The notes beneath the pieces were generated by a model, which saw nothing but the letters and a program-made list of their open reading frames with translations, ran no database searches and had not been told where the DNA came from. This document shows positions 22,214-45,691 of a stretch of DNA of 64,000 nt, piece by piece; position 1 is the stretch's first letter; the number at the start of each line of letters is the position of its first letter. Origin of the DNA: Xestospongia muta (lineage: Eukaryota; Porifera; Demospongiae; Haplosclerida; Petrosiidae); the NCBI GenBank assembly GCA_963693285.1, contig OY848924.1, positions 315,001 through 379,000 of the forward strand. The letters are read 5' to 3'. A program made the translations under genes and the position numbers.

Positions 22214-22668
22214 AGACACTACATTAGATAACTACTCACTGCTGTTAGTAAATGTGTTATAGATAATTATTAGACAATTACTGAATAATGTTGTATATTG
22301 TTTTAATGAAATATTGTAGTTATGTGATTGTGGATTACTTCACATTTTATGTTATTGATATAATAATAGAGAATTAATTTGTCATGTAATTAACAATAAA
22401 AAGATTAACAAAAACAGCAGCAACCATAACATAACAAACTAAGTGTCTAGACTCTCTAAGTTTTAAGTATATTCATTAACAAGCTATATTAAGGAAATAT
22501 ATGTAGGGGCAAATATATCAAAGTAAAAAATGTAGGGGACTGGAGACTAAGTAGGTGGAGTTAAGCCTGCAGTACATAGAAAGTAAAGACATTTGTCATA
22601 TACAGTAGATTACTCAATTATAACATCATTAAAGACTCAGTTATACAAATTTTAATTATCTAATATAA

Positions 22669-22836
22669 TTATAGTGTTGTATGATAAAATGTCTCACTTT
22701 CTAGTTGACTTTTCATTCTTGTACCAATGTCCTTTAACTCCTGGTTCTGCTTTAGAAGGAAATCACAAAGAGCTTTTAAAAACTCAATTCCTTGTTCATA
22801 AACCTGTTGTTGTAGTTCATTAACTACTTTATTAGC
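22669..22836 (-). pseudogene. Truncated CARD exon downstream of gene B
   Basis: The minus strand reads NKVVNELQQQVYEQGIEF, then LKALCDFLLKQNQELKDIG and a TAA at 22669. It is almost identical to the 3' half of gene C's CARD exon (56122-56290). The first half of the exon is absent: similarity stops at 22836 and unrelated sequence follows, without an acceptor in frame. The flanking 3' DNA (22260-22669) also matches 55720-56120. It is the relic of a CARD-type ending that gene B no longer appears to use. Confidence 0.75.
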
Positions 22837-23030
22837 TCATCTCAATCATTTCTTGTCATAAAGTTTTATTCATCATTGAGATTGTGCTCTATTACAACCA
22901 GTTTATGATAGTCAGAGGAGAACAGGTGTTTCTCCTTATAAGGAGGTGGTTTAGACAACAAATTTGAGCATGCTTTTAAATGGTTTTGTAATAGTTATTA
23001 TTTGAAGCAGAAAGCAACTGTATAGTGTAA

Positions 23031-23288
23031 TAACAGAGGCAGAGACACCACTCAAAAAGTGGGGGGACTCAATCAAAAAAAACTTATATGTAGAATTAAT
23101 TAATTAGTGTAAATTGAAATTGCAGCTGCTAGAGAGTTCACACAATGCAACATTTTTTACACTATACAGACTATCACCCACCCACGTATATAATTGCCTT
23201 CATTGCAAAGTGGGGGGGCCATGCCCCTCCAATTTGAAAAGTGGGGGGGCTCAAACCCCCCTGCCCCCCCAGTATCTCCGCCAGTGAA
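23031..23288. mobile_element. C/G-rich repeat insertion near gene B 3' end
   Basis: A compositionally odd block in AT-rich DNA, bounded by GGCAGAGACACCACTC and, in reverse, GGCGGAGATACTGGGGG. Its interior repeats GTGGGGGGGC / CCCCCC runs. The similar outward-facing ends suggest a short non-autonomous DNA element. The overlapping minus-strand open frame 23174-23491 is a by-product and shows no domain. Confidence 0.4.
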
Positions 23289-23472
23289 TAAGATACTACA
23301 AACAATTTAACAATGATTCTTGTGACAATGTTTTTGTATAATATTAATGATATCATTAAAAGTAATAACAAAATTACAGTTTTGTAAAAAAAATGGAAAA
23401 TTAGCATTATTGTGAAATGAGATACAAAAGCTAGTGGCATGAATACACCTTTAGGATGTTTTTTATTCAATT

Positions 23473-23570
23473 TTAGTGAAGTAGCAAGCAACCTACAACA
23501 ACAGCAATCAAAGCTACCATTATGAATACAAGATAAAGGAAATTTCTTGAACTGATCATGATACGATTGC
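23473..23570 (-). CDS. Gene B last exon: C-terminal transmembrane helix
   Basis: Continuing in phase from the second death domain, the exon reads SNRIMISSRN, then the uncharged stretch FLYLVFIMVALIAVVVG, then CLLH and TAA at 23473. Basic residues precede the helix and only a few residues follow, as in tail-anchored proteins. This would place the domains in the cytosol on a membrane surface. A GT within the exon (23491-23492) could instead act as a donor, but reading through gives the clean ending and parallels the TM exon at 54836. Confidence 0.6.
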
Positions 23571-26500
23571 CTAGAATGATGGACACATAATTATGCATAA
23601 AATCATTTACAAAATTAAATCAAAGCCTATATTATCAATACAACATTGCTTTTGTTTAACATTTATCATTTCAAAATAGCATGAATGTAATAGGTATATT
23701 ATTATACTAACATATCTGTAAGATTATTCCATAAATTGTATACTCACTTTGTCTTTTAGCTCTTCTGTACTTAATTCGAATTTCCATCAAAGATTCTTTA
23801 ATAGTCATGACCACATCTTGCCTCTCTATGACAGGGCCTCCAACAACATTAATGATGTTCTCCCAAGTAACAGGGGTAGGTTTCATTTCAATCCACTTCT
23901 GTAGAACGTCTCTTAATTTAGTTTTGTCGGATTCGGTAGATTTCTCCAAACATTCAATAAAATTAGCTTCTACCTCAAGTTGGTCACCAAGTAATTTCCA
24001 TCTAGCACTAATATGAGTTAACAGATTCATAAGTTGAGACAGTTCAGGTCTTTTACCTTTCAATGACAAAATGAAAGTATCATTTTAATAATAATGTAAA
24101 TCACAACATACCTGGATTGCTCTTCAAAGATGTAATCCATGACATACATGGAGAGCCTTTAATCCATGACATACATGGAGAGCCTTTAGTCTCATTGACA
24201 CAACCACCATTAGGCAAATTACAGTGAAGCTCTCTGTAATGCTGGTTTAAAATAGCAAGATGGCGAGGCTGTTCACCACACGGACAAAAGAAAGCAATGT
24301 CTAATTTCATTCCTTTACCAATGTTTCGCCTCTTTTTGGTCTCCTTGATAGCATTTTCAATGGCTTCCTTGACTTCAGCCTGATCTTCACGACGCTCGCA
24401 GTGAATCTCAAACCAATCTGAAGATTCTACCAAACCAACTCTTCCCAGTAAATCATCGTTACGCAATATAATAGCATTGGAGTGCATCTCGGGAGTAGAC
24501 TTAGTGTCAAGTGACCACGAAAAGTCATTATAGAGCCCACTGTTGTCATTATCATCAGTGATATAATCTTCACTTGAGAGGAGTTTAACAACCATAGCAC
24601 AGAAAAAGCCAACTGGAACACCATTTTTAAAGTGAAACAGCAATGGAGTGCTACCAGAGCTTGAAAATGGAACTGCCTCTGAAGGATCAATTAAGGGCAA
24701 CAATGCAGGCATAAAATATCGTTCATTAGATGGCTTGTTGCCTGGCAACTTCTTTGCTAGTAGAAGATATGTGAAGATATCTAATAAATCATTTTTAAAA
24801 CCATGAAACTTGGCAGATATATCTGCAAACATTTTAAAATCTTTGTGTGAAAAAACTTCGCTAGTAATGATGCCAAACTTAGCCATTTCTGGCAAAGCAC
24901 ATGTTCCTAGGCCAACATTAATTTTACTGCGTATTTTACAAATAACAACCATCAGCTCATTGACTACTTGAATAAGGCTATAAGGATCAATGAAAACTAG
25001 CTTAGACACATTTTCTGGATAGTACAAAATTGAGTTAAGGAGATATAAAAATTTTAAAGCACTATTGATTTCTCCTTTATCTAAACCTAACTCAACACCA
25101 GAAGATATGCACTCTTCCAATGGCAGTATACCACAACTGTCACGAGCTTTGTGACGCAGTAGAATTTCATATGCATACCACCTTAATGGAATATTCACTT
25201 TAAAAGATTGATTTCTTAATTCATCACGAATTTCTTCCATCATTTTCTTAAGGTTATCATCATGCATTTCTTCAGAATATTGTGCTTTACTGCCATCGAT
25301 TTCAGATAGAATTTTTCCAGAAACTGGGTTTTCGTATAACAAATTATCCTTCACAGCTTGAAAAATGTGTTTAAGTTGACCCTCTTTCTGTGCAATGGTT
25401 TCTCTAATATTTCCATTCTTTTCGAGCTCATCATATTTATCTCGATGAGTAGCAATGGTAATGACTTTCAATTTGTCTGGTGGCTTGATTGCAGCAGCAA
25501 GACATTCATCACTACTGGTCATATCCTCTTGATGATTGCTGAAATTGACCATACTTATAAGACGTTTTAAGAGAGTCTCGATGGATAATGAGTGCTTACT
25601 TACTTTGTACTTCTTCCCATTTTCACATTGTAATTCAGTAGAGGACTGGCTAGAGAGGCTATCTGCTAGACTAATAACTAGCATGAGGGCTGATGCACAA
25701 GGTATAAATGCTTGTAAAATCTGCTGAAATTGGATTTGACCCCCAGAATCAATAAAGTAGAGCCAGTCCTTGTACAATGTTAATTTGCCAGTCTGGGAAG
25801 AAGCATTACTGAGAATGTCTGATAACCGCTTCACTGCAGTATTACTTTCATCAGCTAGTGAAGATGTCTGAGCCATGCTAGAAGTTTCGCTAAGAGCATG
25901 TAATGCTACCACATCATTGCCACTTTCTTCTATTGGTTGTAAACCAGGTTCTTCCTTGGGATCTGGATCAGTAGTTGAAGAAGTGATGTTAGGTGTAGTG
26001 GGAACAGGTAACTCAACACTCTTATCCTGAGCCACCTCTGCATTTCTATTACTTTCCTCATATTGATTGTCACTATCTAGCTGTGTTTCATCAAGATTAT
26101 ATTGACTGTGATCCCCTGTTTCTTTGCTACCGCTAGGGTGAGTGCCATCTTGTGCTTCATTGTTGTGTTCTACTTCTTTGTTTTGTTGTGTCTTCATAGC
26201 ATCATCTTTTTCTATAAGAGACTTAATATCATTTGCAAACATTTCAATAAAGTCATCATCTGTGACCAGTTTCCATTTCTTTTTTTCATCTTGACAAAAC
26301 TGTTGTGCCGAAAAATCTCCAACTGCTACTTGTGGGCGCTCCGCAATACCAGTACTGGCTATACTATCGTAAAGCTTAGAAAGAATAAGACATTTCACTG
26401 AGGTCTTGCCAACTCGAGCAGGACCTTGCACAAGAACTTTAGAAACATTGGCTTCAACTTTTCCACTACTCTGGATGGCTTTATGAAGATATTGAAAATC

Positions 26501-29500
26501 TATTTAAGCAGAAAACAATCATTTAGCTTATTAAATTCTATTACTTAAAGACAAACATGGATAGGTTATTCAGCATTAAACATTGTTACATTACTTGAAT
26601 TGTGACATGATACCATAGAAGTTGAAAGTGCTGATAAGATCCTTAGACTTATGAAGTGATATACAGAACTATATCCAGATATTGTGCTGACATCACTTTG
26701 AACTTCTATGATATCAAGCCACAAATGTGTTATTGCCCAACCTCTCTTTATTTGTTAATAGAGGGTGTGACATGACATTTAATTTCTCAATGTAAAGCAT
26801 TATTCCCAGACAAGCTAGATCCTTCATATTCTGGAAATTATTGCAAGAATGAAGGTTTGCATAAATTTTGAAGTCAACATAAGGTCTATGTATAGGTTAT
26901 TGCCCAACCATTCTTTTTGCTATATACAAACAGTACAAAAGTCATAACAGTAACTAACCTATTTTCTGAGCTTCAGTAACTTTAACAAGATCTTCTTGAC
27001 CATCTACAAGAAATGATTTAAAATGAACATAAAATTTGTCAATGTATGTAATAGACCAAAATCCAATGCAAAGTATTATATTATATTATAATCATAAACC
27101 AAACTATAACAAGGATATGATTTTTGTTAGTCATTTTTCTGCTAGTCCACCCATTTCCCTGATGCAAAATATATATAGTGCTATACCATATATCGGGAAA
27201 TATCTGCGTTGCTAAATTTTTGCGAATTTCACAAATTTAACTCCATCGTAAAAATATCCCTCGTCAATTTCTCACAATTATGGGTGTGGCAAATGGTTAC
27301 GCAAAAAATTCGATTATGGGTGTGGCAAATAGTTAGTAAAACTAATAGTAACCACATGGCTCTCTTTAGATATTTCAAGAAGGAAGAACGTTTTCCTGAT
27401 CTTTTAGAACCACTATCAACTAAAGTTCTGTCTTCTACATTGGACGTCCATACCTCTTTATAAACATGGTATCAGGAGTCTATCTCGAACATCTCCATTG
27501 TCGAGTGCAGGTGTGACAAAACATGTTTAGGGTGTGGTCAAACGGTAATAATTGCAAGTGGATGAAAACATGGTGTAAATTCGGAAAATTTATATTCGTG
27601 AAAAACCACAATTTCACCAATTCGCAAAAATATCCCAACGTGAAAGTTTTCCGATATATTGTATATAGTCTGTATGTCATGTGACAAGTACATGACATAA
27701 TATGTGAGTCAGCCATGAATAATTTACTAAGAATTAAAGAGTGACATCTAAGACTATTTTAACCCACTCTCAAGTGAGATGAGGGTTTATTTATACTTCT
27801 TGTCAGGTGTACCAATATAAATTTGGGACGTATTTGAAAATATAATTGAACAATCACTATTAAATTTACAAGTTATCATAACATAACCCTTAAGAGCATT
27901 TGTCTGCTAATTTAATCACTCATATCTTTTTCTAATTCTCTGATCGAAACTATTTGTACGGCCATGTAAGAACTATAAGAATAGTTGCTGCTTTTTACTA
28001 CTCACACAAATGCCATAAGTGTTAGCAACAAGCAAGTGCTCATGAATTTAGAAGTTACTTTTTCAGTGCTAATGTATGGTCAATTTACTCTATTACAAAC
28101 ACATGATTAACAATTTCATTACATTGCAAATTTTAAAGCTCACCAGTAGTCTGGAGATTAGTACTTTTAGTCAAATCTGTGCTTCCTTCCATTTTTTGAG
28201 TTTCTATGAGGACAAGATGATACAAATAATTAAATTTTAAATGACATGAATTTACAAATCTCATGGAAAGTTCAATATTAAACCTTATTTTCAAATAATG
28301 GACTATGACAGTTGCTAAAATCTACCAGAAAAACACTTGATTTTGATCTTTTCCAGTGAAGCATTGCTTCCCAACATGGTAATACAAATACCTTAAAATA
28401 GTTTCTCCTTCAACAGCTAATGTAATACAAACAGACAAGACTAAATGTTGTAGCAAACATTTGTGTCATATATAATTATACTTTGAATTTGGCAGCTGGA
28501 AAGTCAAGTGACTTTAACTACATTACTGTTCTAAAAATAGGAGGTGATTATTGACCACCAATAAAGGTGTTGAGCAACACTTTAAAGCCAATTAAATATG
28601 CTATAAACAGTTATACATATCACTGTGTATATTTTTTATTAGTTATCAAATGTTACACCTGCAACACTCAAATCCAAGTAGTATATACTTCTACCTTGGT
28701 GTATATGTTAAGTAACATTAATTTAAGAACATACTATGTAACTCGAGCCTTTTTTTAAGCTAAATACAGTAAGTATGTTTGTTTTAAGTAAATAATATGG
28801 TTTACTTTCTCTATTGTATACATTATGTATTTAGACAAACATAATGACATTAACTTACCAGTAATAGTCTTACTATTGTCAATGATAGTTTTATCAACAC
28901 TTTCATCTTCTGCTGTAAGTGAAGAACATAAAGTAGCTAGTAATTTAGGAACTATTGAAATAATGTCTAAAGTTTTAATGTTATGAATAAAACTATCTAG
29001 TCAATTCGGGTGTGGCTCAGAAAATTGCTAACTTACTAATAGTCACTATATTATAATCAAATATGTACAAACTTGATAGAATTAATAATGTACATCATCT
29101 TACCACTAATTATAGTCATGATGAACTTACCACTAACAGTGTTACTGTCCTCAGTAATAGACTCACTAACTCTTTCATCCACATCTATATTGCGAAGGAT
29201 ATAAAGTAATTTAATTAGTCATTTAATAATCATTATGTAATCATGTACAGGTTAAGTAATATGAGCTTACCATCACTTTGTTTGTCAGTTGTGTTTTTGT
29301 CTGTTTGTGTTACATCTTCTATAAAATTATAACATAAAATAAACATAGAATATATTAGTATATATATGTACCATTATTATGTTGACACTAGAGTGGATTA
29401 GAAATTACTAAACTTAATACACTATATCTAATAAATAAATATAAACTTAAAGTGTTGTAGATAATTATTATAGTAATAAAGAATATATTGTTTTGTTAAT

Positions 29501-32500
29501 AAACCAATTACTAGATACAGTATATATTTGAGGTACATGCATTTATCAGATAAACACATTTTAACAATATCTTACCAGTAGTGGTCAATAACTCCAAGAT
29601 ATCATCGTCACAAATGTCACTAGTTTCCTTTGTCATGGCTACATAAATAATATCATAAAATAACTATGATGATTACTAGCTTACAAAGACAATGATAAGT
29701 AAAGTATCATTATTTTTAAGAAATCTAATAAAGGCATAATTGGGACACTTACATTTAAAAAAAATTTCCATCTCTGTCATAACTGATTTATTTTCAATAG
29801 GTGGACTTTCTATTGTCTGCAAAATTGTATTCCAAGTGACAACAGGTTTAGGCATTGTATCCATCCAAAGTTGTAGTACTTCGGAAAGTTTTTCAATGTC
29901 ACTTGAAGTCCTGCTTTGTAAAGAGGCCAGGTATTTGTTTTTAATTTCAAGACGTTCACCAATAATTTTCCATTGGAAAGCAATATCTGACATTAGTTTT
30001 AGGAGATCACATTTCTTTGGAGGTTTTGCTATCAAATGGGAAAGACCAGAGTCATCAGTGACAACAATGTATATGTATAGACACTATAAATATAACAACG
30101 TTTTCACTGTATACACACCAATTACATGTACCTATCACTATCCAAATGTTGTCCTTAGGTACATATAATACACATTGAAACGTAAATCATACCTTTTAGA
30201 AACGAAATATTTGTAGATTGAAGGCGATCTTTAGAGACTTTCATTATCTCATCATGTGTCAAAGGTTGACTTGAAAGAACCTTAAATTCAATAGAATACA
30301 TCTCTTGAAATAATGGGTCACAGGTAATCATAATGTATTAATAAAGTATAATTAACTGTGTTCACATATAAAGATGTATAGGCTCATATATCATATAATA
30401 ATGAAGACACATATTAGGTTTAATATACTACTGTAACTTACCAAAGGATTTTGTCCATGGAAAAAACTGTAGTCATTGAGATGACTTGTGACAGCAGAAT
30501 AGGTGCTACCTTTGGATGTATTATAAGATGACATTATACTGGGAGCAAATTCTTGTATGTGTTGAAGAAATCTCTCTGGAATAACTTGATTGGTTTTACT
30601 AGTGGAGAATAAGGCATGGATGACTGCTGGTGCAAGGGAGATGTATGGCTCATGTGGACAAACATGTTTAACATTGACTGGACTGTCTTGAACTTCATTA
30701 TGGTCAAATATTTCCTCATTAACTAGCATTCCTCGAGCTACATTATTTACTCTGTAGAGTATTCGTTCAGAAATGGCCTTACCACGGATGTCAGCTAATG
30801 ATCCAGGAGGGATGATGTACTCTTCAATTTTACATGCACAAAACTGCTTTTGAAGAGACAGAACCAGTTTTATAACAGAGCAACATATTTTTTGACTTTC
30901 AACTCCTTTGTCATTGGAAACAAATACAGTAACACATCTGTTATTATCTGTCACTTCCACTACTACATCATTACTATGTTTCCAATATATACCATTCTTC
31001 CAAACTGTACAACGACGATTCAACTGCTGAATAGAATTTTTGTCTAATTTACCAACTTTACGGTGACGAGGAAGGGAATATAGATATGCTAATCGAAGCA
31101 AAAGAACGTGAAGAAAGCGAACAGAGAGAAATTGAAATCGATTAGGACAATACAAGCACCAACCAAATCCACTTTTGAAATGCTCATTTAAATCTGAAGG
31201 AGGCTCAGTGGTGATGAGAGCTGGAAAAAAAAGAACGTCAACATTAGAAACATCATCTGATGAAGACAGGTTGGTAGTAATAGCATTCAGTGTGTCTGAA
31301 TCAATAGCATGACAAAATTCCATGCTTATTAAAAAATCAATAAGCATATTTGTATCATATGTTGGAAAGAGCTCTTGTAAAACAGAAACATGGACAATAC
31401 CAGTGTTGCTAGAGGTTGGTATAGGAAGACGCTTGATGTTCTGATTAAAAAGAACACCATTAACTTCAGCAAGGAGGCTTGATTTATTGATTACAATCCA
31501 ACTATTAGACACTATTTTATTTCTCAGAAACAGAACAAGACCTTTGTTACTGAGAATTGACAAGTAGTCAAACAAAACTGTTTCATCTGAAGGGAGGGAT
31601 GGATCACCAAGAGCTTTTAGGCTTTCAATAAGCTCATTAATGCTAATAGCTACTTTCTGTAGCTTTTGGAGGTAGGCATAATGCACATGGCAATAATAAC
31701 TAATGCTATCAGATGTATCATGAACAGCCTTACAACTTTCACGAAGGTGAACAATAAATTCAGGGAAACCTTTCCCACCTGGGCGATGACACTCCATGGC
31801 AACAAAACCTCTATACTCTTGTTTACGGATGGCATCTTTAACAACATAATTGACATGCAACTTGAATTCATCGTAATTACCAGTAAATTGATCAGCATAG
31901 CTTCCAACGACAATTACTTGAGAAGGTTTAGTTAAAATAGCGCAAACATTTTCAATAAAGTTAAACCAGTAATACAACTGATTCTCAAAGTAGTCAAAAC
32001 CTTTGGTTGAATCTATCACTACTGTAAAAACTGCAGGAGTTCTCAACATAAGATTCTCCAGCACAGCTGCATGACTACTGTAATATTCTTGATGACCAGC
32101 GAAATCATAAAGAATAATATTGCCAACTTCATGACTACGAACATTATGATAGTTAATACCGGCAGTTTCCAATTGCACACCTTCAACACATTGAGAAGGG
32201 TTGTAGTGATAATCAGAAGGTTTATCAGCTCGATATATAATGCATTGGGCTAATGAACTCTTTCCAGCTGTCATGTTTCCACAAAAAAATACTTTTCTAT
32301 ATGAATCAACTGGAAAGTCTTGACGACTTTTCTCAAATGGTTCAAACATCTTCAATATTTCTAATCTGCTTGGATCATATAGTCGGACTTCTTCTAGTGG
32401 TGTATTGTGACGATTGTTATGAGCAAGTGGATTGACTTTTCCAGTGTGAAGAAGATATGAAATCACATCTACTTTACTGTTTGCACAAGCAAGATGTAAT

Positions 32501-35500
32501 AGAGAGTCCCCATTCTGTAAAGAATGAAGAAATACAATTATATTTATTATTAATGCAATCTAGATTATACATGTATCATAGATAAATAATGTTATATAAT
32601 CTCCTAATAGAGCAACAATGAAATTTCTTCAAATAGTTTTGTTATTTTAAAGTTAATTTCATAATACAAGTTACAAGTTATACCAAGAAGCACCCTAAAC
32701 CCTAAACCCTAATAAATTGATTCATAAATAAATATTGTCATTGATTGATATAACGACAACAGGTTATGTTTGACACATTGTAGGCAAATATCAAAATTTT
32801 ATTTTTGATTATTGTTCTTGGAACATCTTTTGCCAAAAATATGTTATCAAAATATTGGACAGTCTGGATAAGAGTGAGGTTGATATCAATATTGAAGACA
32901 ATATTAAATGTCATACTTCAAAGGAATAGCTCATAAGTAACTATAATATGACTTACATAATCTGTAGCATTTATGTCAGCTTGTCCCTCTTCAATTAATA
33001 AATTTAGAACATCAACATGACCCTTCTGTGCTGCATAATGTGCTGCTGTTCTACGATCCTAGAAAACAAAAGAGGAAAAGTTATTCAATTACAAAAAGTA
33101 CAGGAACTATCATACAATAAACTATATAGTCAATATAACAGTCATCAATACAGATAATCATAGCTATTGTATTATCATGTCAAACCTGACCAATGACAGG
33201 GACATAAAAAGACATAGAAACTATCTAAGATATTAAATGAGTGTCAGTTTACTATAAACATTGTCATCAATAATAAACTAGGTCATTTAGGTCACAAACG
33301 TATCATAACTACCACACTTATAATGATTATCAATTCTATTAACATGATGTAAATATTTAAACTTGACTTTATAACTAACATTTAAAAGGTATAGGGTTTC
33401 TAAGTATTATAACCTATGAGAAGATGTTCTATGGAGATTTCATTGTAATATATTATGAAAGTTAAATGTTTGTTATTGCTAATATAAAATAAAGTGACCT
33501 TTTTAAATGTAATCATAAAGTCATTTTGTATAATAACTAACAAATAGTTTCCTGTCCTGATTGATTATTGTAATATTACTTTATTATTTTATAAACCACA
33601 CCCACTGATATGCAATATAGTGCTAGTCTTTCTATGAGAAGAGAGATTATTCTTCAATAATCTTAAGCTGTTGGCAACCAATTGCGATATATCTCAAGTA
33701 TGCCATCAATGTTAAGGTTTAATTTTTAAGGGGAGGGGTCTAGTTATATTAGTAACCATAGGTAATTTAGATGTGTTAAGGATAGCTCCAGATAAGACAT
33801 ATTGTTCCATGACATTACTCTTTGTCCATCAGAATTAAGGGGTAACTGTGTATTCTCAATGTAACCACTAGTTTATTATAATAGCAATGTCTATTACATG
33901 TTAATATATTCAGGATATAGGGAGCTTAACATCTAGTGAGTAACATATATCCATGGATGACATAAGCTTATTCAACATCCATAATGTATGCTCCATTCTT
34001 CTTATTGTCACTATGAAGTACATGTAATGAAAATAACAAACTACAACTACCACAGATATATTAATTAATTTATAAAAGTTTAATCATAAGAAACAACTGG
34101 GACTATAGTACTGATGGGTGATTAACTGGTTTAGTGATTAAGCTTTGACTGCAAGTCTAGTAACAGTATAAAACTATAGTATAATGTTAATGATATAATG
34201 TCTACAATCATCAGAGCAGTTTGACACAAATGGCAGAACATACTAGTGGCACCTCTGTGAATACCAAGATCATTGCCAACTATATGTACTACTATTATAA
34301 CAGACCACACCTACTAATACCTGACACTGACTGTCTTTGTTAATCCTTTACTAACAAGAATTTGAACAACAGGTCAATGTAGAAATTACTAACAGCCACA
34401 CCCATAACATTCTATATCTATTAAATACTGATTTAAATCTAGTAACATGTAATAATCTCTACAAACAATATACACTGACCTTGCCATAAATGTTGGGATC
34501 GGCATTAGCGTTTAACAATAGTTGTACAATATCACAGTAACCTCCTTCTGATGCGAAATGTAGAGCTGTTTGCTGACCCTAGGGGAAGTACGCAAATATT
34601 TATTGTTAATTATAATAGCATTAAATTTTATAGAATATTATAATATATACCAATAATAAAATGGACCTCTTATTAAAATTTAAACAGGATTAAAATTATA
34701 AAAATTGTCCTAAAATGCTTAAGGATGTATTGGTATTGCATATATTTATTAGTTTATAAACATTTAGTGATAAGAAACAACTGACAGTATTATATTAATA
34801 CAAGTATTAGCCCTGGTGGATCTAGGGGGGTGCCTGTGTACTCCAGGTACCTCCTTTTTATTCTCTAATAATATTCATAGTCAATCATCAAGTTGCATCC
34901 TGTGATAAAAATTATTACTTTAACAATATTCATAGCAAATTCTTGCAACCACAACTTACAAAGCTATACCTGATGTTTTATTGACATTACTGTCTTGTGA
35001 TTAAAAAGGTGTGTCTATGAATAATGAATAAATTAATTTTTATTAGGCTTGAAATTTTTGCACCATGCTTCCCACATGGTCTGTGCACCCTCTATATCTA
35101 CACTGTGGATCCACTGATGATTAGTATAACAATTGTAACACCTGCTCTGAAAGATATGAGTAATAATTTATTTTTGGATCATGGCTACCATTATTATTAA
35201 CTACATGATATGTAGGGCTTGTTTGTTTATTATTATGTAATGTATTTTAAAACATAACTCATAAGATATAAATTTGGTCATGTAATTTCTACAAACTTTC
35301 TTGTTTAGATTTGTATACAATACATCATTACACAGGACATGAAAACACAGTCATATACTAGATATAATAACAAATGTGACTTTGATATCTATCTTTACTA
35401 TATTATTTCTAACATAATTTCTATATACTTAGGTTCTATTAATTTCTATCTTGACATTCCAAGTAATACGTTCAGCCAATCAAATTTCAATAACTACATG

Positions 35501-38500
35501 TTTGATGGCAGATAAGAAACTTATCAAGGCTGTTCGTTGTTTTCCTTACTTGTGGCAAGTATCAGGCAAAAGCTATAAGGATGTAAGAACAAGAGAAAAT
35601 GCATGGAAGAAAGATGCTAGCCAAATAATTAAAGAAACAGTGAACAGAAATAATATACTTTTGTTATGCTATTTTGAATTGTCTTATCATGACTTGTTGG
35701 AGCCGTTGAGTAAATACAGGATGTACCTACAGTTTTCTTTGTTTCTGTTGTCTTCTTTGTCATCTGTAAAGTAAAGCAAGCAGCAACACTTCAGTCTCCA
35801 TGACGAGGGTGGAGTTTAGTTCACATACATCCTGTTGTTTATATGAACAGCATTGACACTGCACTATGTAACTCAACACCAAGAATGTGATGTGACACAT
35901 ATACAAGTTTAGTTTTGTGAACCCACCTTATATCAATAAATACAAATCTACTAGTTTACAAATAAAATAATAGTCTTTTGATAAACTTGAATTTGGCAAA
36001 AAGTTGTACTAATAGTACAAGGTTAGTAGGAAGTGTGACAAAATGTCAAAATAGTCTATTAATTAAAGTTGTGGGTTAAAAAGTCCTTGTTCATTAACAT
36101 TGTATGATAATGTCAATAAAGTAAATGATAGAGAAGTCTTATGGAAATAGGAAAAGAGAGATTAAACCACTTTCTAGATGAAACAATGTCTGTAATTGAT
36201 CTCCTTTGTTATAGAATATATTACTTTAAAAAGTAAACACTAACAAACAACAGTAATTTATTACTATTTAATCAGTGTACTAACCTCCTCCTCATTACTA
36301 CTCAGCTGAACATTGACATTAGCACCTGATGTAAGGGCTAGAGTTACATTTTCTATATCACCATTATAAGCTGAAATCAAAAGTAAGTGATCCTGTTAAA
36401 ATAAATAATATATTATAACTGTGACATGTACCCACATATAATTAGGTCATGTTTATAATATATCATAACATATAAGATCACTATGTCCATGTCATCATAT
36501 ACAGTAAATATATTATTACATTTATCACTTACATTTCTAACTTGGTCCATATCTCTTGCTCCAAAAGAACATAAGAGCTTAACAATGTTATCATGACCAT
36601 ACCAGTATGCTAGATGAAGTGGACTATGTCCCAACTAAAAAATGAAATAAATTGTTTAATAATAATAATAGATTAAACTTGTTAAAGTGGACATATATAG
36701 AAATATACATACACACATGGTCCAAAACAATCTTAGGACTGATCAGGTTTATTTCATGTAAGAACACATTAATGTTTTATATATTGTTTTACATATTAGG
36801 TTTATTATATTTTCCAGTCATATTAGTAATTGTTATATATCAAACAACAAATGAGAGCTACTTTGTCCCACCCACACAAATACATTGAAAATTAATTACA
36901 TGGCATGAAAAGGTTAACTTAATTGTATTCATTACATTGACTTTGATCTATATCCTGTCCTACTAGACAGGTAGTACTACATATATGTACATGTAGTAGA
37001 GATAATAAATGAAATATAAACTATATACAATACACACTGACCTTGTTATAAATGTTAGGATTTGCATTTGACTGTAGCAGCAACTGGACTATCTCAGTGT
37101 AACCACTATCTGAGGCTAAATGCAAAGCTGTATCGTCATTCTAATAATAAAACAACAAAGAATGTGAATGAAAATATGACTACTACAATATTTAAAATAC
37201 TACAGTAAGAGAATATAACTAAGTCTGGTAATCAGTTATAGTATAGTGAAGATATCACAGCAATGTTGAACATCATACTATAGAGTTAGTAACAGTTTAA
37301 AAATATGTGTACACAGATGAAGTATTGAGTTTGTTGATGACAGAATTAGTCTAATTCTTTGTCTATTAAAGCAAAACAACAATGAAAAATGAAAGGCACT
37401 AAAGTGCCGAACCTCGCTGCAGTTTCTAAGTTATTTATTAATCCTATGCCAGCTTAGGCCCAGCTATGATGTTGTTATTCCAAGAAAATTAATTAACATT
37501 CCAGAAGGTGTGGTTATAAAATGGTAAGCTTTGTCATTCTGTATATGCTCATTATTGTTGCTTGATTTCTAGCTGTGCCATGTTTGTGAAGCAGTAACTG
37601 AGTAAGTGATAGTATCATTCAATTGCCAAGCAAGATTAAGTGCTAATTTCATGATGAAAAGTTTCTACGAGTCTGTTTTTCTTGATGTTCTTGATACAAC
37701 TGTTGTAAAGTCCACATGTTGTTCTAGTTGTTGCTAAACGTTGGTAGCTGCTAACGCTTTGGTTGCCAAGTTATAGCAGTTCAAAAAAAACAACCCCGGT
37801 ACAGACACACACACACACACACACAAACAGACTACAGTACCCTCGCTATGCGGCCATGCACAGTGAGGTTAAATATAAACTATATATAATACACACTGAC
37901 CTTGTTATTAATGTTAGGATCTGCATTTGACTGTAGCAGCAACTGGACTACCTCAGTGTGACCATTACGTAAGGCTATATGCAAAGCTGTATTATCATCC
38001 TAATAATAAAACAACAAAGAATGTGAATGAAAATATGACTACTACAATATTTAAAAGACTACAGTAAGAGAATATAAGTAAGTCTGGTAATCAGTTATAG
38101 TATAGTGAAGATATCACAGCAATGTTGAACATCATACTATAGAGTTAGTAACAGTTTAAAAATATAAGTGTACACAGATGAAGTATTGACTTTGTTGATG
38201 ACAGAATTAGTTTAATTCCTTGTCTATTACAACAATACAACAATGAAAAATGAAAGACAATAAAGTGCTGAACCTCGCTGCAGTTTCTAAGTTATTTATA
38301 AATCCTATGCCAGCTTAGGCCCAGCTATGATGTTGTTATTGCAAGAAAATTAATTAACATGCAAGAAGGTGTGGTTATAAAATGGTAAGCTTTGTCATTC
38401 TGTATATGCTCATTATTGTTGCTTGATTTCTAGCTGTGCCATATTTGTGAAGCAGTAACTGAGTTTTCAGTGCTTGGAGACGTTTTCTGAATGCGTTACT

Positions 38501-41500
38501 TCGCTCCAAGTCCACAAAACATTTTTCAGAACTTTTCTAACAATTGGTTCGACCAACAGCCTTCTGTCTTTCTGATCCGCATTCCTCTGAGATTGTTAAC
38601 AACATACTAAAAAATCTCCACGTTAAGTTTTTTTACTTTTCGAGAAACGGCACTTGACCTCTGCAGCCTGAAAATTCTTTTGCGAGTTTTAAGCTTCTGT
38701 TTTTCTTGATGTTCTTGATACTACTGTTGTAAAGTCCACATGTTTTTCTATTCATTGCTAAACGTTGGTAGCTGCTAATGCTTTGGTTGCCAAGTTATAG
38801 CAGTTCAAAAAAAACAACCCCGGTACAGACACACACACACACAAACAGACTACAGTACCCTCGCTATGCGGCCACGCACAGTGAGGTTAAATATAAACTA
38901 TATACAATACACACTGACCTTGTTATTAATGTTAGGATTTGCATTTGACTGTAGCAGCAACTGGACTACCTCAATGCAACCATTATGTGAGGCTATATGC
39001 AAAGCTGTATTATCATTCTAATAATAAAACAACAAAGAATGTGAATGAAAATATGACTACTACAATATTTAAAAGACTACAGTAAGAGAATATAACTAAG
39101 TCTGGTAATCAGTTATAGTATAGTGAAGATATCACAGCAATGTTGAACATCATACTATAGAGTTAGTAACAGTTTAAAAATATATGTGTACACAGATGAA
39201 GTATTGACTTTGTTGATGACAGAATTAGTCTAATTCCTTGTCTATTACAACAATACAACAACATTGTTTATTGTGGTATCTAGATATAGTAAGTTCATAA
39301 CATAGAAGTCAAATTATACATTGAGCTGTGGATTCTTATTATGTACTGTGGCTTTGAGTATCATACTTTGGTTTTCAATTGTTGGTATCTACACACAAAC
39401 TATTACAATGTCCTAGTGTTTTCATCATCATATTGATTCCTATATTACAATGTTATGACATATACAGTATAGCTCATTAGGTTTTGAATATTTTATGATA
39501 AAAAATATTATTCAAACATTAAATCTTGTATATCTGACGTCTCATAAAAATATTATATTGTTTTTTAAATAAACATATAATTGTGAAATTAATGAGCTAT
39601 CATTTACTAGAAAAGAGTCATATATTATAATAAGATATAACTTACTCTATCTTTCTCTTTAGCATTCACATTAGCATTCTTCTTTAAAGCTTCTTTCACT
39701 ATATCTACTAGTCCACACATAGCAGCTGCTAACAATATTTCATCCTAAGAAATCACAATAAGTAAATACAGATAATGTACATTATAATAAATACAACAGT
39801 ATATACTAGGAATACACATGTACATAAATGTCACATGACCCAGATTTCATCAACCAGAAGCTCCATTATTAACTATGTATAAAGTACATGACCATGTACA
39901 GTGTTATATAACTATATCCAACATATTAAAGTACACTTTATTTATCTGAAATGATTTCAAGACATTAATACTAACATTCACTAATAGATAGATAAAGATC
40001 TACTTTATAACGAAAGATTTACAGTGCTACCATAGGGTTAATATGGATAGCTAGTCAAAGACAATTTAGTCATTGTTTATACTCTGTCCGAGTTGAGTTG
40101 GGCCCTTCATTAAAAAAAAGCTATTGTATGCATGGAATATAAGGTGAGATATTTTCTCACCTAATCAAGTGCAATTAGCGCTGAATACATTTTAATATTA
40201 TTCATTGTTTGTTCACGTGAATGTCATGCACACAAACCACGTTTTCTCTCGTGGTCGTGAAAATGCAGAGTAAAAAAGACTGAATCACAAACAAAGGAGG
40301 TTGTTGTGAATGTCTATGGCTATTTCGAGGAAGTCAGCAGGCGTCAACAGACTCAAGGACCTCTTAAAGAAATATCTGATGCCACAGGAGTTTCATGTAC
40401 CAGCATCAAGAGGCTACTGATAGTTCTGATGACAAATAGTTGTAGATATTCTTAGTCTTTCTTCTTTGTTAAAAGGGTTTTTTGAGAACCACAGTGGCTT
40501 TATAGCTGCCTAAAATCGCAAAAGATAATACTTGATTATTATTTTAATAATAATAATTGTTATAATAGAACATTTGTTCATATAATTAGAACTGTAATTT
40601 TGAATTGCCATGTGACAAACGACTGACTTCTAAAGGTGAAAAGCGATTTTTGTTATATCCTCGAAGGTGTGTAATTTGAAGTATGCTGAAGGTATGCCAT
40701 TGAAAATGTATGGAATTTTTTAGTTTGCTATTTTCTCGTAGCACTAGACAGCCAAAGTTTATATATAAAATGCATGTTTGTGAGCTCAATTGATTGGTAC
40801 AAGTTCCATGTAGATAGCACGTAAAACAGCAAAGTTATTTACATGTCTGGGTGGCTCAACTCAACTCGGACAGAGTATAGAAAATTAGAAATATATTCAG
40901 TCCAGTTCATCTTCTTCTCAAAAAAGCCTTAACAAATTGATACCCAAACTAAGGATAAATAAAAGCCTGGTAAATATGAAATACTAAAATAAACTCACTA
41001 AACCATTTTACAACCTCTTCAAGTGGGCATTAACCTTTACATAAGGTCTATTGAATTTTATTAGTTATAAATAAACATTCCTGTGGTTACATGTTCTGAA
41101 ACCAATTAATTACATACCTAAACATGACAGATATACAAACATTTACCTAGTGCTAAGACACTCAGTAATATATCTTGACTTTAATTAATGTAATTGTAAA
41201 TGTTATATGAAGTCAATTGGTAACACTGTTGTATCTTAGTGTTATATGATATGTTTTAAACTAATGATTTAATGATAGTTACTAGCTATAGAAACTAATA
41301 TTAAAAGAAAGGTAGTGTGGAGATAAACAGAACATAGGTACACAAAAATTATATTAGTAAAGGTCATAATAATTATCCATTAAATGTATTGTTATGTGTA
41401 TAAGGACTTGGGCATTAAATAGGAGACATTTTAATGTAAGTATGTACATGTACATAATATCAATGTAACAATCAAACACTTGAGTTATACTAAATATTGA

Positions 41501-43066
41501 CCTCAACTACATACATGTATACACTTACATAATCAGGAGTAGCACCTGCATTTTCTAAGAACTGGACTATTGTATTATGACCATAGATGTAAGCTACAGT
41601 ATGAGGTGTTGCTGGTGTATAATAATCAAGATAACCAACCTATATAATAAACAAAGACATTTTAATAGATGAAATAAAATCCAATTCCATATCTGTGTAT
41701 ACACAATACAAGCTATTACTTTACATTGACATGTATCATTAATTAAGACATTACTATCACACAATATAATGGATTTCATTCGATTAAATTATAAGACAAT
41801 ATTAAAAATACTACATGTAAAGATCATGTATGTTATTAATTGTGGATACTAATTCAGTAACTTTAACAAATAGAATAATAATTAATAAATTGTGTAAATG
41901 TTGAAGTTTTTAATTAATATTTAGGTATGGCTAAAATGAATTAATACTCATTAAATCTACATAATTTAAATTAATTACTTAAGTTAGTAGACACAAATAA
42001 TAACAGTAGGTTAAAGGGAAATTAATAGGATCTTACTTCAATGTGACATTTCAAGTTTGCTCCATTCTGAAGGGCTTGCTTGACTCTCTCTAAATGTCCA
42101 CCATAAGCAGAGTTGGAAAGTTCAAAGTCCTATATAATAATAAAACAAGTCATTACATTTAAAACTAGTAAATCATACACAACTACATGTATTATATGAG
42201 ACTAATAAAACTATAGGACAGCTCAAATACACAATACACAAACTGACACTATTTATATAAAAAGAACATGATGTAATTAGTATTATGTATATAACTAACA
42301 GAGACAATTAGACTATACTACAAATACAAGACTACACTAACTAATAATAAACAGTTCAATCATCTTCTTTCCATTCTTTTGTTGCTAATATTTATTTGAT
42401 ATGTGATATGATCAAGTAATAGTAATAACTGGACATTATTCAAGTATTAAAGTGAGTGCTATGAACACATAGAGACAGGTCCATAGAATGATAGTAGATA
42501 CAACCATTGTTTACATAACTAATAGTATTTATCATGTGATAATGAACATGATCAGTTGTAAATTAATAAATATTAATAGTGTGAATAATTATCACAGATA
42601 ATCAGATATAATGTCACTCAACTAAAGTCTATAGCTTGTAATAAACTATCACTTAATGAACAATTTGAGTTATGAAGAAGCTGTGTAGTCTATTTCCAAG
42701 TAATCTTTTCTATTTATGTAAAAAGAAGTACAAGAATTAAGAGAAACAATTTGACTGTTTAGCTAGTTCCCAGTTCTCCACTTTATTAGTAACACTTTAT
42801 AACATTATCAAAGAACTTATTACCTGTAAAATATTCAATAATGGCAAGTGATGCTGAAATAAATTTATGAGGGAACATTAACAATATACTGTAATAGATT
42901 GAGTGTGACAGCCATTTTGTCATGTCTTTCTCTACATATAAACCATACCATACTTAATAATAATATGTAATGTATTGATTGTACACTAACACATGTAGTA
43001 TACTGGATTAGTTACTAATATACTTACAATTCTCCATTGCTCTCTCTCTGATAGTTGACATGCCAT
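23473..43066 (-). CDS. Gene B: ankyrin-Roc-COR-death-GTPase-COR-death-membrane protein
   Basis: Twenty-four minus-strand coding exons join into an open frame of 2218 codons plus stop: 43028-43066 (ATG at 43066), 42824-42853, 42037-42129, 41529-41639, 39646-39744, 38919-39017, 37901-37999, 37042-37140, 36533-36634, 36285-36392, 34480-34578, 32957-33058, 30442-32514, 30193-30301, 29753-30028, 29576-29638, 29271-29318, 29131-29184, 28859-28912, 28144-28203, 26959-27003, 24112-26499, 23748-24056 and 23473-23570. Ankyrin exons are all phase 0-0, linkers all phase 1-1, and total length is divisible by three. The architecture resembles DAPK1 without its kinase domain plus a second GTPase module. The likely role is a membrane-tethered death-fold scaffold or sensor (inference). 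Joining of the two halves rests on phase continuity, not on transcripts. Confidence 0.7.
23748..24056 (-). CDS. Gene B second death domain exon
   Basis: The 103-codon exon starts GKRPELSQLMNLLTHISARW, continues KLLGDQLEVEANFIECLEKS, and ends LRDVLQKWIEMKPTPVTWEN followed by a basic tail. The W-x2-LG-x2-L, L-x2-VL-x-W and VTW positions are those of the six-helix death domain. It directly follows the second GTPase-COR exon in phase 1, the same order used by the first module. It likely makes homotypic contacts with other death domains. Confidence 0.8.
24112..26499 (-). CDS. Gene B second GTPase (Roc-like) plus COR-like region
   Basis: A single 796-codon exon. It opens DFQYLHKAIQSSGKVEAN, then the P-loop GPARVGKTSVK (G1), a Glu/Asp/Asn/Ser-rich insert of roughly 150 residues, DSGGQ (G3) within LYFIDSGGQIQF, and VITIATHRDKYDEL, the T-H-x-D form of G4. 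A winged-helix COR-like half follows (WYAYEILLRHKARDS, LVFIDPYSLIQVVNEL). The insert between G1 and G3 replaces the switch-I area and is far longer than in LRRK2 or DAPK1. The C-terminal part contains IAFFCPCGEQPRHLAIL, a Cys-rich loop I cannot assign. It is clearly divergent from the first Roc module. Confidence 0.75.
26610..26713. repeat. Short inverted repeat (fold-back) in gene B intron
   Basis: ACCATAGAAGTTGAAAGTG at 26612-26630 pairs with CACTTTGAACTTCTATG at 26694-26710 with few mismatches, leaving a loop of about 60 nt. It may be a small MITE core or an RNA hairpin in the intron. A related GTTATTGCCCAACC motif occurs on its right side and again at 26897. Confidence 0.4.
26959..29638 (-). 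CDS. Gene B linker: six phase-1 microexons
   Basis: Exons 29576-29638, 29271-29318, 29131-29184, 28859-28912, 28144-28203 and 26959-27003 each add 15 to 21 codons in phase 1-1. They encode Asp/Glu/Ser/Thr-rich segments such as DVTQTDKNTTDKQSD, VDERVSESITEDSNTVS and EDESVDKTIIDNSKTIT. No structured domain is visible. The second and third are near-homologous to gene C linkers (57773-57820 and 57633-57686), so they are a conserved cassette family. Equal phases mean any could be skipped without shifting frame. They connect the first death domain to the second GTPase. Confidence 0.7.
27186..27661. mobile_element. MITE-like element (family M5) in gene B intron
   Basis: Left end CCATATATCGGGAAATATC and right end (reversed) CAATATATCGGAAAACTTTC form imperfect inverted repeats flanked by TA. 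Interior segments GCGAATTTCACAAATT and AATTCGCAAAAATATCCC also mirror each other. Open frames on both strands inside it (27209-27463, 27480-27716) show no family features. Confidence 0.5.
29753..30028 (-). CDS. Gene B first death domain exon
   Basis: The 92-codon exon starts AKPPKKCDLLKLMSDIAF and continues QWKIIGERLEIKNKYLASLQ, EKLSEVLQLWMDTMPK and VVTWNTILQTIES. The Trp, LG-like and L-x-W anchor positions fit a death domain. It follows the COR domain, separated by a 36-codon hinge exon (30193-30301), as in DAPK1 where a death domain closes the ROCO module. Similarity to the second death domain is clear in the VTW helix but low overall. Confidence 0.8.
30193..30301 (-). CDS. Gene B hinge exon between COR and death domain
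   Basis: Thirty-six codons beginning MYSIEFKVLSSQPLTHDEIM and ending near NISFLK, entering in phase 0 and leaving in phase 1. A second acceptor eight codons inside (before GTTCTT) also keeps frame, so the exact start is uncertain. No domain recognised. Confidence 0.55.
30442..32514 (-). CDS. Gene B ROCO core: last ankyrin repeat, Roc GTPase and COR
   Basis: One 691-codon exon. It opens with an ankyrin repeat (NGDSLLHLACANSKVDVISY), then linker and Roc: FFCGNMTAGKSSL (G1, about protein residue 440), ILYDFAGHQEYYSSHAAVLE (G3) and QVIVVGSYADQF (G4, a variant of T-H-x-D). COR follows with VSILQELF-type winged-helix segments, FFPALITTEPPSD and RFQFLSVRFLHVLLLRLAY, and it ends FFHGQNPL at the donor. 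DAPK1, LRRK2 and MFHAS1 share this tandem. No kinase or leucine-rich repeat is attached. Roc-COR proteins typically dimerise through COR and cycle GTP slowly. Gene C carries a close paralogue. Confidence 0.88.
32957..42129 (-). CDS. Gene B ankyrin-repeat exon array
   Basis: Ten phase-0 exons of 93 to 111 bp. In transcript order they read DFELSNSAYGGHLERVKQAL, a 37-codon repeat ending GATPDY, DEILLAAAMCGLVDIV, then NDNTALHIASHNGCIEVV, DDNTALHIALRNGHTEVV and NDDTALHLASDSGYTEIV (37042-39017, mutually near-identical), LGHSPLHLAYWYGHDNIV, DHLLLISAYNGDIENV, GQQTALHFASEGGYCDIV and DRRTAAHYAAQKGHVDVL. Each carries the hydrophobic ankyrin core. The three central exons are separated by R1 elements and arose by local exon duplication. 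Introns between them are shared with gene A. Confidence 0.8.
33060..34470. other. Gene B intron, repeated in genes A and C
   Basis: Gene-free intron whose left part matches about 63010-63940 and parts of 5390-7020. It includes TGAAAATTT-type AT-rich DNA and the conserved block AACCACACCCACTGATATGC. No coding or RNA feature seen. Confidence 0.5.
35505..35774 (+). CDS. MADF-like open frame, copy 2
   Basis: Starts MADKKLIKAVRCFPYLWQVS and continues KSYKDVRTRENAW, keeping the Trp that is a stop codon in the copy at 203-352. The MADF-like part is about 50 codons, after which the frame runs into a hydrophobic tail (LLEPLSKYRMYLQFS) and stops at 35774. A complete MADF domain is about 85 residues, so this is either a first exon or a fragment. 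It lies in an intron of gene B on the opposite strand. Harbinger-type transposon origin is possible, but no transposase is nearby. Confidence 0.45.
   Translation: MADKKLIKAVRCFPYLWQVSGKSYKDVRTRENAWKKDASQIIKETVNRNNILLLCYFELSYHDLLEPLSKYRMYLQFSLFLLSSLSSVK
37410..38888. repeat. Two R1 elements interleaved with duplicated ankyrin exons
   Basis: R1 copies at 37410-37870 and 38271-38888 alternate with ankyrin exons 37042-37140, 37901-37999 and 38919-39017. The copies differ by internal deletions: the first lacks the middle present at 2307-2760, the second lacks a different part. Each unit (exon, intron, element) is about 0.86 to 1.02 kb. Confidence 0.65.
40082..40875. mobile_element. Complete copy of element M3 with perfect 19-bp inverted ends
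   Basis: Left CTCTGTCCGAGTTGAGTTG and right CAACTCAACTCGGACAGAG are exact reverse complements, flanked by TA on each side. The plus strand inside encodes EVVVNVYGYFEEVSRRQ followed by SDATGVSCTSIKRLL (about 40290-40420), resembling the first helix-turn-helix of an IS630/Tc1-family transposase, but no catalytic domain is present. It is therefore a deletion derivative. The paralogous copy at 8935-9650 has lost its right end. Confidence 0.75.
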
Positions 43067-43954: not shown

Positions 43955-45691
43955 CGCAGTGGCTAGAGGTCCGGCAGCTGGAGAGAATTTTCCGGCACAG
44001 TCGGCACTACAGATCCAGCAGTGTCATATCCGGACGTAGACGGACGCAATGCACATGGCTGTGACTTTGGATTTCAAATATCAAACTTGACCACAGGTAT
44101 TTATTATTATGACAAGATCTACAAAACCAAAGTTTAGACTTCGGTAGATTATGCAAGTTGATACATTTAAAATGGTACCAAATCAAGCAACTATCACATT
44201 GTATGGATGACTCAGTTTCATCATTGATAGGACTTCTACATCTGCCACAATACAACAGAGGGCTTCCTTTTATGATAGCAATTACGTCTTCTACTGCTAA
44301 CCAGGCTTTTCTTGTGAAGTACTTCTTTCATATTTCTAGGCACACTTGTGGATCCAAACAAGAAGCAGTCACTTTCTCAGACCTTATCTCCACCTGATAT
44401 TCTTTAATCAAAACTTTATAGGAAATGGCAGCCTCAGCAATAATGGGGTCAACAAACCAGAGCAAAATTACTATAAAATATTAATTAATTGTTAAGAATG
44501 CAGTTAGAGGTCACATACCCTTCTCTCTGTCAACAGGAGGTTTCTTTAAGAAGGTAATGGGCTTGTTTAGCTTTTGTTTCTTATTAGGCAGACCTATAAC
44601 TGTTTTCTCTGCTCCCTTAGACCTTCCCCTTTTCCTCATCTTAGGTGGTAGTTTAACACTATCTAGACCTGAAATAATGTTACCTACATATAACAACTGT
44701 AAACATATACTGTACATATACTCACCATTGTTCTCCTTATCTGAGTCACATTGTGTATCTCCAATACTAGATCTATCTACTATGTTCTCATTATTATCTG
44801 AAAGTAATCAACAGATGTTTGAAATTAATGGAAGTAAACAAACCTTCACTCTGGATGTCAACACTGGTACTATCTAGATCATTGACATATCCAACATCTT
44901 CATTTAAGCAGTGTATTAGACAATCCAGATTATCTAAAAAGTACACCTAATAAACATTCATGTAATGTGTCTGTACCTTCATTCTTTTTGTAATTATCAT
45001 CTGTATTTGTGAAAATTAAAATCAGGTATAACTAATACTATATTTACACTTACCAATCATTTCAAAGCACTGATGACTAGAAGCTACTTCCTCAGTGACA
45101 ACAGCCTGTCCACCTCTTTCCCATATACTATGCAATTGCTCTAATACATCTATTCACTCCTTGAACTCATCCATTTCAACTTCTGAAGCAAGAGAAGGTA
45201 ATTGCTCAATCATTGCCTTGGCTCTCCTGAATTTGTCATGTTGAGACAGCACTGTTTCCTTTTGTTCTGTGGACATACACTTAAGAGACAACTATATAAT
45301 TAACTGACATAATATAACTTACTGGAGTTACTTGATAAGTCTCATCATTTGCTGCTGCTTCATGATTCTAAACACCTGCTGAAGGTAAGACATCTTCCAA
45401 TGGTCAGGAATATCCCTTGCTGACAAAAGAGAAACACCTTCTTTTTCATGTACTGCAAACATGTGCCTGCAAGGCAGTTTCATTGTACTCAAAAACTTGC
45501 ACTGACATGCATCATTGCTCACACTCAGAGTACCTAATTCAAGACACCACAATAATTTTAGTAGTTATAAGCCATAATATATAATAATTATGTACCTTCA
45601 CTAGAAGAAGCAGTGTACAGACCATCCTTGTCTGTCGCTATAAGGGCAACGTTTTTTCAAAATGCAAGTTGCTTAGAGACATAGTGACAAG
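43955..45691 (-). mobile_element. Truncated MULE copy
   Basis: Matches 12638-14371 of the full element, including the left inverted repeat and the same AATGATTTT left flank, then ends abruptly at 45691 in unrelated DNA. The PHD exon (44007-44255), AT-hook exon (44511-44717, here RGRSKG instead of RGRPKG) and SWIM exon (45328-45552) are recognisable. Extra stops are present, including a Cys-to-TGA change near 44330 and an Arg-to-TGA change near 45156. It is not an independent insertion: the left flank shows it was copied with the surrounding gene. Confidence 0.9.

What the first reader, a model, noticed from the sequence alone, without database searches (positions are those of the whole stretch)
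23473..43066. A giant two-GTPase death-fold protein: ANK-Roc-COR-DD-linker-GTPase-COR-DD-membrane anchor
The exons join in one open frame of 2218 codons with phases that match at every junction (0-0 through the ankyrin part, 1-1 through the linkers and into the second GTPase). Known ROCO proteins (LRRK1/2, DAPK1, MFHAS1) carry one Roc-COR tandem. Two different GTPase-COR-death modules in one chain, ending in a membrane helix, would be a new architecture and could act as a built-in heterodimer. The reading frames and motifs are seen; the single-transcript claim is inferred from phase.
Basis: partly seen in the sequence, partly recalled or inferred. Interest (0 to 1): 0.88.

Follow-up and report, generated by a model that had tools for sequence, protein, structure and literature searches.

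The report
Sponge gene fusing two Roco GTPases
A barrel-sponge gene appears to join two different LRRK2-like GTPase modules, each with a death domain, into one tail-anchored protein made by fusion of two gene families inside introns; if transcribed as predicted it is a new build of a known signalling-protein family.

Summary
Order: ankyrin repeats, Roc-COR 1, death domain, short-exon linker, Roc-COR 2, death domain, C-terminal membrane tail. Predicted folds of both GTPase exons match Roco/LRRK proteins first. Comparison with paralogues supports one chain. The 5' half is a tandem gene whose four neighbouring copies carry no second GTPase. The 3' half belongs to a second family of about 55 loci. 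They meet inside an intron at window 28235/28232. The 5' half lost its own end (a broken piece of the ancestral last exon survives at 22860-22696), and the nearest relative found of the 3' half has further linker exons and a death-domain exon where ours is cut. Module 1 lies upstream of module 2, same strand, within 12 kb at 9 of 55 loci (random placement: mean 1.1, at most 6); both other gaps that I read can be spliced in frame. No transcript was seen; the joint message, GTPase activity and heterodimer idea remain inferred. Single Roc-COR-death proteins are known; two Roc-COR units in one chain were not found in the searches made.

The parts
43028..43066 (-). exon 1, proposed start ATG (may be internal; upstream residues conserved)
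   Evidence: doubt
32957..42129 (-). exons 2-11, ankyrin repeats, about one per phase-0 exon
30442..32514 (-). exon 12, last ankyrin repeat and Roc-COR module 1 (ROC1); GNMTAGKSS, DFAGH
30193..30301 (-). exon 13, joins module 1 (phase 0 in, phase 1 out)
29753..30028 (-). exon 14, death domain 1 (below Pfam cut-off; 36% identical to death domain 2)
28859..29638 (-). exons 15-18, linker exons of the ROC1 gene family, all phase 1
28232..28235 (.). fusion junction: ROC1-gene intron homology ends at 28235, GT2-gene intron homology starts at 28232
28144..28203 (-). exon 19, linker exon of the second family; its ATG is Val in 4 of 4 other loci where the exon was found
27184..27665 (.). dispersed repeat of about 480 bp inserted in intron 19, absent from the nearest relative found
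26959..27003 (-). exon 20, linker exon of the second family
24112..26499 (-). exon 21, Roc-COR module 2 (GT2); GPARVGKTS, DSGGQ, THRD
23748..24056 (-). exon 22, death domain 2
23473..23570 (-). exon 23, C-terminal membrane tail and stop
22696..22860 (-). broken remnant of the ancestral last exon of the ROC1 gene (2 stops in 55 codons)

Best explanation
One fusion gene for a tail-anchored, cytosol-facing double Roco protein. Shown by sequence: the 5' half of a tandemly repeated ankyrin-Roc-COR-death gene was joined, inside phase-1 introns, to the 3' half of a second-family gene (Roc-COR-death-membrane tail). The ROC1 half has lost its own last exons. The GT2 half starts inside an intron, at a point where its nearest relative found has further upstream linker exons and a death-domain exon. 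Shown by prediction: both GTPase units have the Roc-COR fold, with conserved nucleotide-binding motifs. Inferred, most likely working: the ankyrin repeats receive a ligand or partner; the two Roc-COR units pair within the chain or between chains through their COR parts, as Roco dimers do; nucleotide state opens or closes the pair and so exposes or brings together the two death domains, which recruit death-fold adaptors at the membrane that holds the tail. By family context (inference) it is an intracellular immune or cell-death sensor.
For: Consistent phases over 22 junctions; conserved splice sites on both sides; junction resolved to 28235/28232, with no more than an 11-nt chance match between the two partners around it; four tandem neighbours carry linker exons pA and pB (4 of 4) and the ancestral last exon (3 of 4) but no GT2; remnant of that last exon downstream of our TM exon; in the nearest GT2 relative found, exon 19 is internal, behind more linker exons (54, by eye) and a death-domain exon (Pfam Death, 34.7 bits); ROC1 upstream of GT2, same strand, at 9 of 55 GT2 loci, 1 downstream, 0 opposite, random mean 1.12, max 6 in 2000; in the two other gaps read, exons joining ROC1 to GT2 are in frame: C5:4104629/4100518 with a death domain between, C1:7242739/7238585 without one; no stops, dN/dS below 0.5; Roc-COR folds.
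Against: No RNA evidence. Exon 19 has an ATG that its relatives lack, so GT2 could have gained its own start. Eight AATAAA/ATTAAA sites lie in introns between 29750 and 26500. At C1:7242739/7238585 a phase-0 exon ending in a stop lies between the modules, so module 1 may end there in some transcripts. 46 of 55 GT2 loci have no ROC1 found within 12 kb upstream (the ROC1 list is a lower bound). dN/dS measures divergence from paralogues, mostly before the fusion. No database protein found covers both modules.
Confidence: 0.7

Rival explanations
1. Two adjacent genes: an ankyrin-Roc-COR-death gene ending after exon 14-18 and a separate GT2-death-membrane gene that starts at the new ATG in exon 19.
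For: Exon 19 carries an in-frame ATG. Read-through of the exon 14 donor gives a stop at 29676-29678 (1). Several AATAAA-like sites lie between the modules. At C1 a possible terminal exon lies between the modules.
Against: The ATG is Val in 4 of 4 other loci where exon 19 was found. The DNA between exon 18 and 28235 matches DNA that in the ROC1 paralogue L049 lies between exon 18 and its further exons. pA, pB and an intact last exon of the ROC1 family were not found in our locus.
Confidence: 0.14
2. A fusion relic: the joint was made by DNA rearrangement but the gene is silent or mis-spliced, its intact frames left over from its recent origin.
For: The halves are little diverged from their nearest relatives tested (dS 0.05 for module 1, 0.09 for module 2), so decay may not yet show; a broken ancestral exon sits downstream; a repeat has inserted in an intron.
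Against: Exons 1-23 carry no internal stop or frameshift, and the module order recurs at other loci.
Confidence: 0.12
3. Assembly error joining two loci of large similar families.
For: Both families are large and tandem, which invites misjoins; the assembly paper reports 84 corrected misjoins or missing joins.
Against: No N in the window; the junction partners share no more than 11 nt around the joint; the remnant last exon on the far side belongs to the same tandem array; similar pairs elsewhere.
Confidence: 0.04

Closest known systems
Amphimedon queenslandica LOC100641765 (P0241)
   Same: Ankyrin repeats, Roc (just under the Pfam cut-off), COR region, death domain, low-complexity linker; module 1 is 40% identical over 641 residues.
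   Different: One Roc-COR only; ends in a second death domain, no GT2, 1591 aa.
DAPK1
   Same: Ankyrin repeats, Roc-COR, death domain in that order (PMC6320773 and PMC6337361, passages).
   Different: N-terminal kinase, one Roc-COR, no second module; absence of a membrane tail is recalled.
LRRK1 / LRRK2
   Different: LRR, kinase and WD40 parts (PMC6337361, passages); no death domain (recalled); one Roc-COR per chain.
Placozoan and brown-algal ROCO families
   Same: Large ROCO families; at least 17 in Trichoplax, with CARD and death domains around Roc-COR; exon shuffling in brown algae (PMC4104024 and PMC11378527, passages).
   Different: The passages seen describe no protein with two Roc-COR units; brown-algal shuffling concerns LRR exons.

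Membership tests
Roco (Roc-COR) proteins | Roc GTPase directly followed by COR, module 1 | tested here: met
Roco (Roc-COR) proteins | Roc directly followed by COR, module 2 | tested here: met
Roco (Roc-COR) proteins | conserved GTPase motifs in both modules | tested here: met
   Module 1: G84 K85 S86, D137, G140 invariant in 33 rows. Module 2: D250 G252 G253 Q254, T350, D353 invariant and K35 in at least 90% of 49 rows
Roco (Roc-COR) proteins | GTP binding and hydrolysis | not testable with these tools
   needs protein
DAPK group of Roco proteins | death domain after Roc-COR | tested here: met
   exon 22 at or above the Death cut-off, exon 14 below it but similar to exon 22
DAPK group of Roco proteins | N-terminal protein kinase | tested here: not met
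   no kinase match in the 424 N-terminal residues nor in exons 12, 14, 21, 22 (4); a longer N-terminus was not tested
LRRK group | LRR before and kinase after Roc-COR | tested here: not met
   no such Pfam match in the exons scanned; exons 13 and 15-20 were not scanned
NLR receptors | NACHT and LRR domains | tested here: not met
   no such Pfam match in the exons scanned; exons 13 and 15-20 were not scanned
single-transcript double Roco | one message spanning both modules | not testable with these tools
   no RNA data held

The most novel reading that the evidence does not exclude
The barrel sponge keeps two large, separately evolving libraries of Roc-COR-death gene halves (at least 220 and 55 loci) and repeatedly joins them through phase-1 introns into tail-anchored double-GTPase sensors, each chain holding its own heterodimer: a combinatorial intracellular receptor repertoire built on Roco GTPases rather than NLRs.
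Probability: 0.35. Interest if true: 0.82.

Novelty: new variant of a known kind. Interest (0 to 1): 0.62.

Why it matters
Roco GTPases (LRRK2, DAPK1) are thought to work through pairing of two Roc-COR units, usually in two chains. A natural chain with two different Roc-COR units would let the pairing question be tested with fixed stoichiometry. It would also show that gene halves meeting inside same-phase introns can make new death-fold signalling proteins in an early-branching animal, and point to a very large, little-described Roco repertoire in a sponge.

Tried and rejected
Rejected: the species is Amphimedon queenslandica (first guess); the named Amphimedon protein is at best 43-44% identical to anything found here, and chromosome lengths fit Xestospongia muta. 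Rejected: the homology break at 28784 seen against the nearest tandem copy as the fusion point; a second ROC1 gene (L049) extends the homology to 28235. Rejected: the DNA between the modules as an intergenic region with its own terminal exon; it matches intron DNA on both sides plus a repeat (48, 83, 98). Rejected label: I called the ancestral last exon CARD-like in notes; Pfam finds no such match (one match, E 0.12, below cut-off), so its fold is unknown. Given no weight: an AATAAA just after the stop, lacking in a relative (L061). Led nowhere: Rfam (no match); literature searches showed no two-Roc-COR chain in the listings and passages seen; the one paper with the phrase 'two Roc-COR' (PMC8201809) was seen as a listing only and is about LRRK2; PDB sequence search with the module 2 profile gave five matches at E 1.2-2.2, three of them LRRK1.

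Limits of the adjacency test: query P0183 was picked because its source contig size equals that of some GT2 proteins, and P0241 was picked to test the species, so the choice of queries is not neutral; the ROC1 list (220) and the GT2 list are lower bounds, since each search scores only its best candidates. A first run with fewer ROC1 loci gave 7 of 55 against a mean of 1.1 and a maximum of 5. The null places GT2 loci at random in the span of the hits on each contig and keeps strands; it does not model tandem duplication, and the three C5 pairs at 2.39-2.54 Mb are close relatives, not independent. Six of the nine gaps were not read.
Full report
The observation. Joints up to exon 13 are in phase 0 and joints from exon 13 to exon 23 in phase 1, with AG/GT borders throughout. 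Ankyrin repeats are clear. Exon 12 matches Pfam Roc above its cut-off and COR-B weakly; exon 22 matches Death at or just above its cut-off, exon 14 below it; the two death domains are 36% identical to each other. The last exon carries a 19-residue window of mean hydropathy 3.06 at the C-terminus. An AATAAA follows the stop closely (sequence), but a relative (L061) lacks it, so I give it no weight. The start is uncertain: residues just upstream of the ATG recur in three other tandem copies.

One gene or two. The first test used the tandem array around the locus. Four other module 1 genes lie in the 144 kb read (C8:281, 308, 373 and 409 kb). No other module 2 was found in that stretch. After the death domain and linker exons the four carry exons pA and pB (4 of 4) and a last exon with a stop (3 of 4; not found for the copy at 280 kb). 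In our locus pA and pB were not found, and a broken piece of that last exon (55 codons, 2 stops) lies at 22860-22696, beyond the membrane exon; the DNA of 22500-22830 is 96-97% identical to three of the copies. So the second-family segment sits inside what was a module 1 gene.

The second test located the junction. A DNA search of 28780-26600 split cleanly: 28780-28235 matches other module 1 genes in the DNA after exon 18 (C8:817766, 97%); 28232-27662 and 27185-26600 match the DNA in front of module 2 in second-family genes (C8:2769281-2770434, 96 and 94%; C5 loci 84-92%); 27665-27184 is a dispersed repeat missing from the nearest relative found, where its two flanks adjoin. The pairwise alignment places the joint between 28235 and 28232; around it the two partner sequences share no more than an 11-nt match. 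In that nearest relative (L048) exon 19 is internal: upstream lie more short exons (by eye) and a death-domain exon (Pfam Death, 34.7 bits against a cut-off of 22.6); our Met codon is Val there and in three C5 loci (4 of 4 loci in which exon 19 was found). Thus our module 2 half begins in an intron and our module 1 half ends in one. The membrane tail and its 3' flank match sites on C5, several of them a few kb downstream of module 2 genes, and one of these encodes the tail NHINNGISFIIVVFAIVVLIAVIVGCLLQ (L060); in a second (L061) only the last residues of the tail are in the piece read. Splice sites are kept on both sides: exons 12-18 against L009, 13-18 against L049 (one acceptor outside the piece), exons 19-22 against four second-family loci, the exon 23 acceptor against L060.

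The third test asked whether the order recurs. Searches of the whole genome found 55 module 2 loci and 220 module 1 loci, both lower bounds (merged). At 9 of 55 module 2 loci a module 1 exon lies within 12 kb upstream on the same strand; 1 lies downstream; 0 on the opposite strand. Random placement gave a mean of 1.12 and at most 6 in 2000 runs. Within 2.6 kb there are 4, against a mean of 0.26 and at most 3. At the other 46 loci no module 1 was found that near. I read the gap at two loci besides ours. At C5:4104629/4100518 the chain module 1 - exon 13 - death domain - exon 15 - exon 20 - module 2 is in frame over 2.5 kb. At C1:7242739/7238585 three short exons join module 1 to module 2 in frame, without a death domain between, but a phase-0 exon ending in a stop also lies between (7242073-7241771), so module 1 may end there. 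Identities are discordant: the C5:4100518 locus has module 1 83% like ours but module 2 48-56%; C5:2406104 has module 2 86% but module 1 50%. This suggests that the halves were paired more than once, or re-paired; no tree was built.

Selection and age. Module 2 against 8 paralogues gives dN/dS 0.33-0.45 without stops, module 1 0.34 and 0.40 against 2. These values cover mostly time before the fusion and do not prove that the fused gene is used.

Organism. The genome has 158.0 Mb; contig lengths of 35.35, 22.15, 13.57, 10.60, 8.75, 8.28, 6.49 and 5.30 Mb (C1, C2, C3, C4, C5, C8, C10, C15) lie within about 0.01 Mb of the table for Xestospongia muta odXesMuta1.1 (PMC12398682, abstract and passages seen). 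Two chromosomes there are 8.28 Mb long, so which one holds the window is open. It is not Amphimedon.

How it most likely works. Shown: order of domains, predicted fold class, motif conservation, membrane tail. Inferred: ankyrin repeats as sensor or docking part; Roc-COR units pairing through COR, as reviewed for Roco proteins (PMC6337361, passages); nucleotide-dependent exposure or clustering of the two death domains at the membrane. A role in immunity or cell death rests on the company these domains keep: in Amphimedon 357 TRADD-N proteins are reported, most with death-like domains and commonly with ankyrin repeats (PMC8195603, passages).

Novelty. Ankyrin-Roc-COR-death proteins are known (DAPK1; Amphimedon LOC100641765). 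A search with the joined protein found 32 proteins, none covering both modules (best coverage 43%); 31 of the 32 carry no name and come from the source 'ena', and the hits look like unspliced ORFs, so this absence is weak. Paper searches showed no two-Roc-COR protein in the listings and passages seen; most subscription papers are not held. I rate it a new variant of a known kind.

Noticed in passing
window 1037-10805 and 58237-63007, minus strand: Parts of two further tandem copies of the ankyrin-Roc-COR-death gene; the first continues below the window (C8:307-314 kb), the second above it.
   Followed up: partly
window 23025-23290: A dispersed repeat of about 265 bp with copies on many contigs sits in the 3' flank of the gene.
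   Followed up: no
L018, L023, L024, L026, L028 and other second-family loci: A second death-domain-like exon follows the first after module 2 in many relatives (tblastn); our locus goes straight from one death domain to the membrane exon.
   Followed up: no
L027+L059, C1:7242073-7241771: A phase-0 open exon ending in a stop between module 1 and module 2, a possible alternative end for the first module.
   Followed up: partly
C8:1428749-1429571 (L024 4539-5361): A partial extra copy of module 2 (77% identical DNA) just upstream of the full one.
   Followed up: no
window 44007-44327, minus strand: An open frame with a Cys/His pattern that looks like a PHD-type zinc finger by eye; possibly part of a mobile element.
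   Followed up: no
C1:12.0-13.0, 20-22 and 29-35 Mb; C8:0.2-4.7 Mb; C3:6.6-7.5 Mb: Dense arrays of module 1 genes; 220 loci found as a lower bound.
   Followed up: partly
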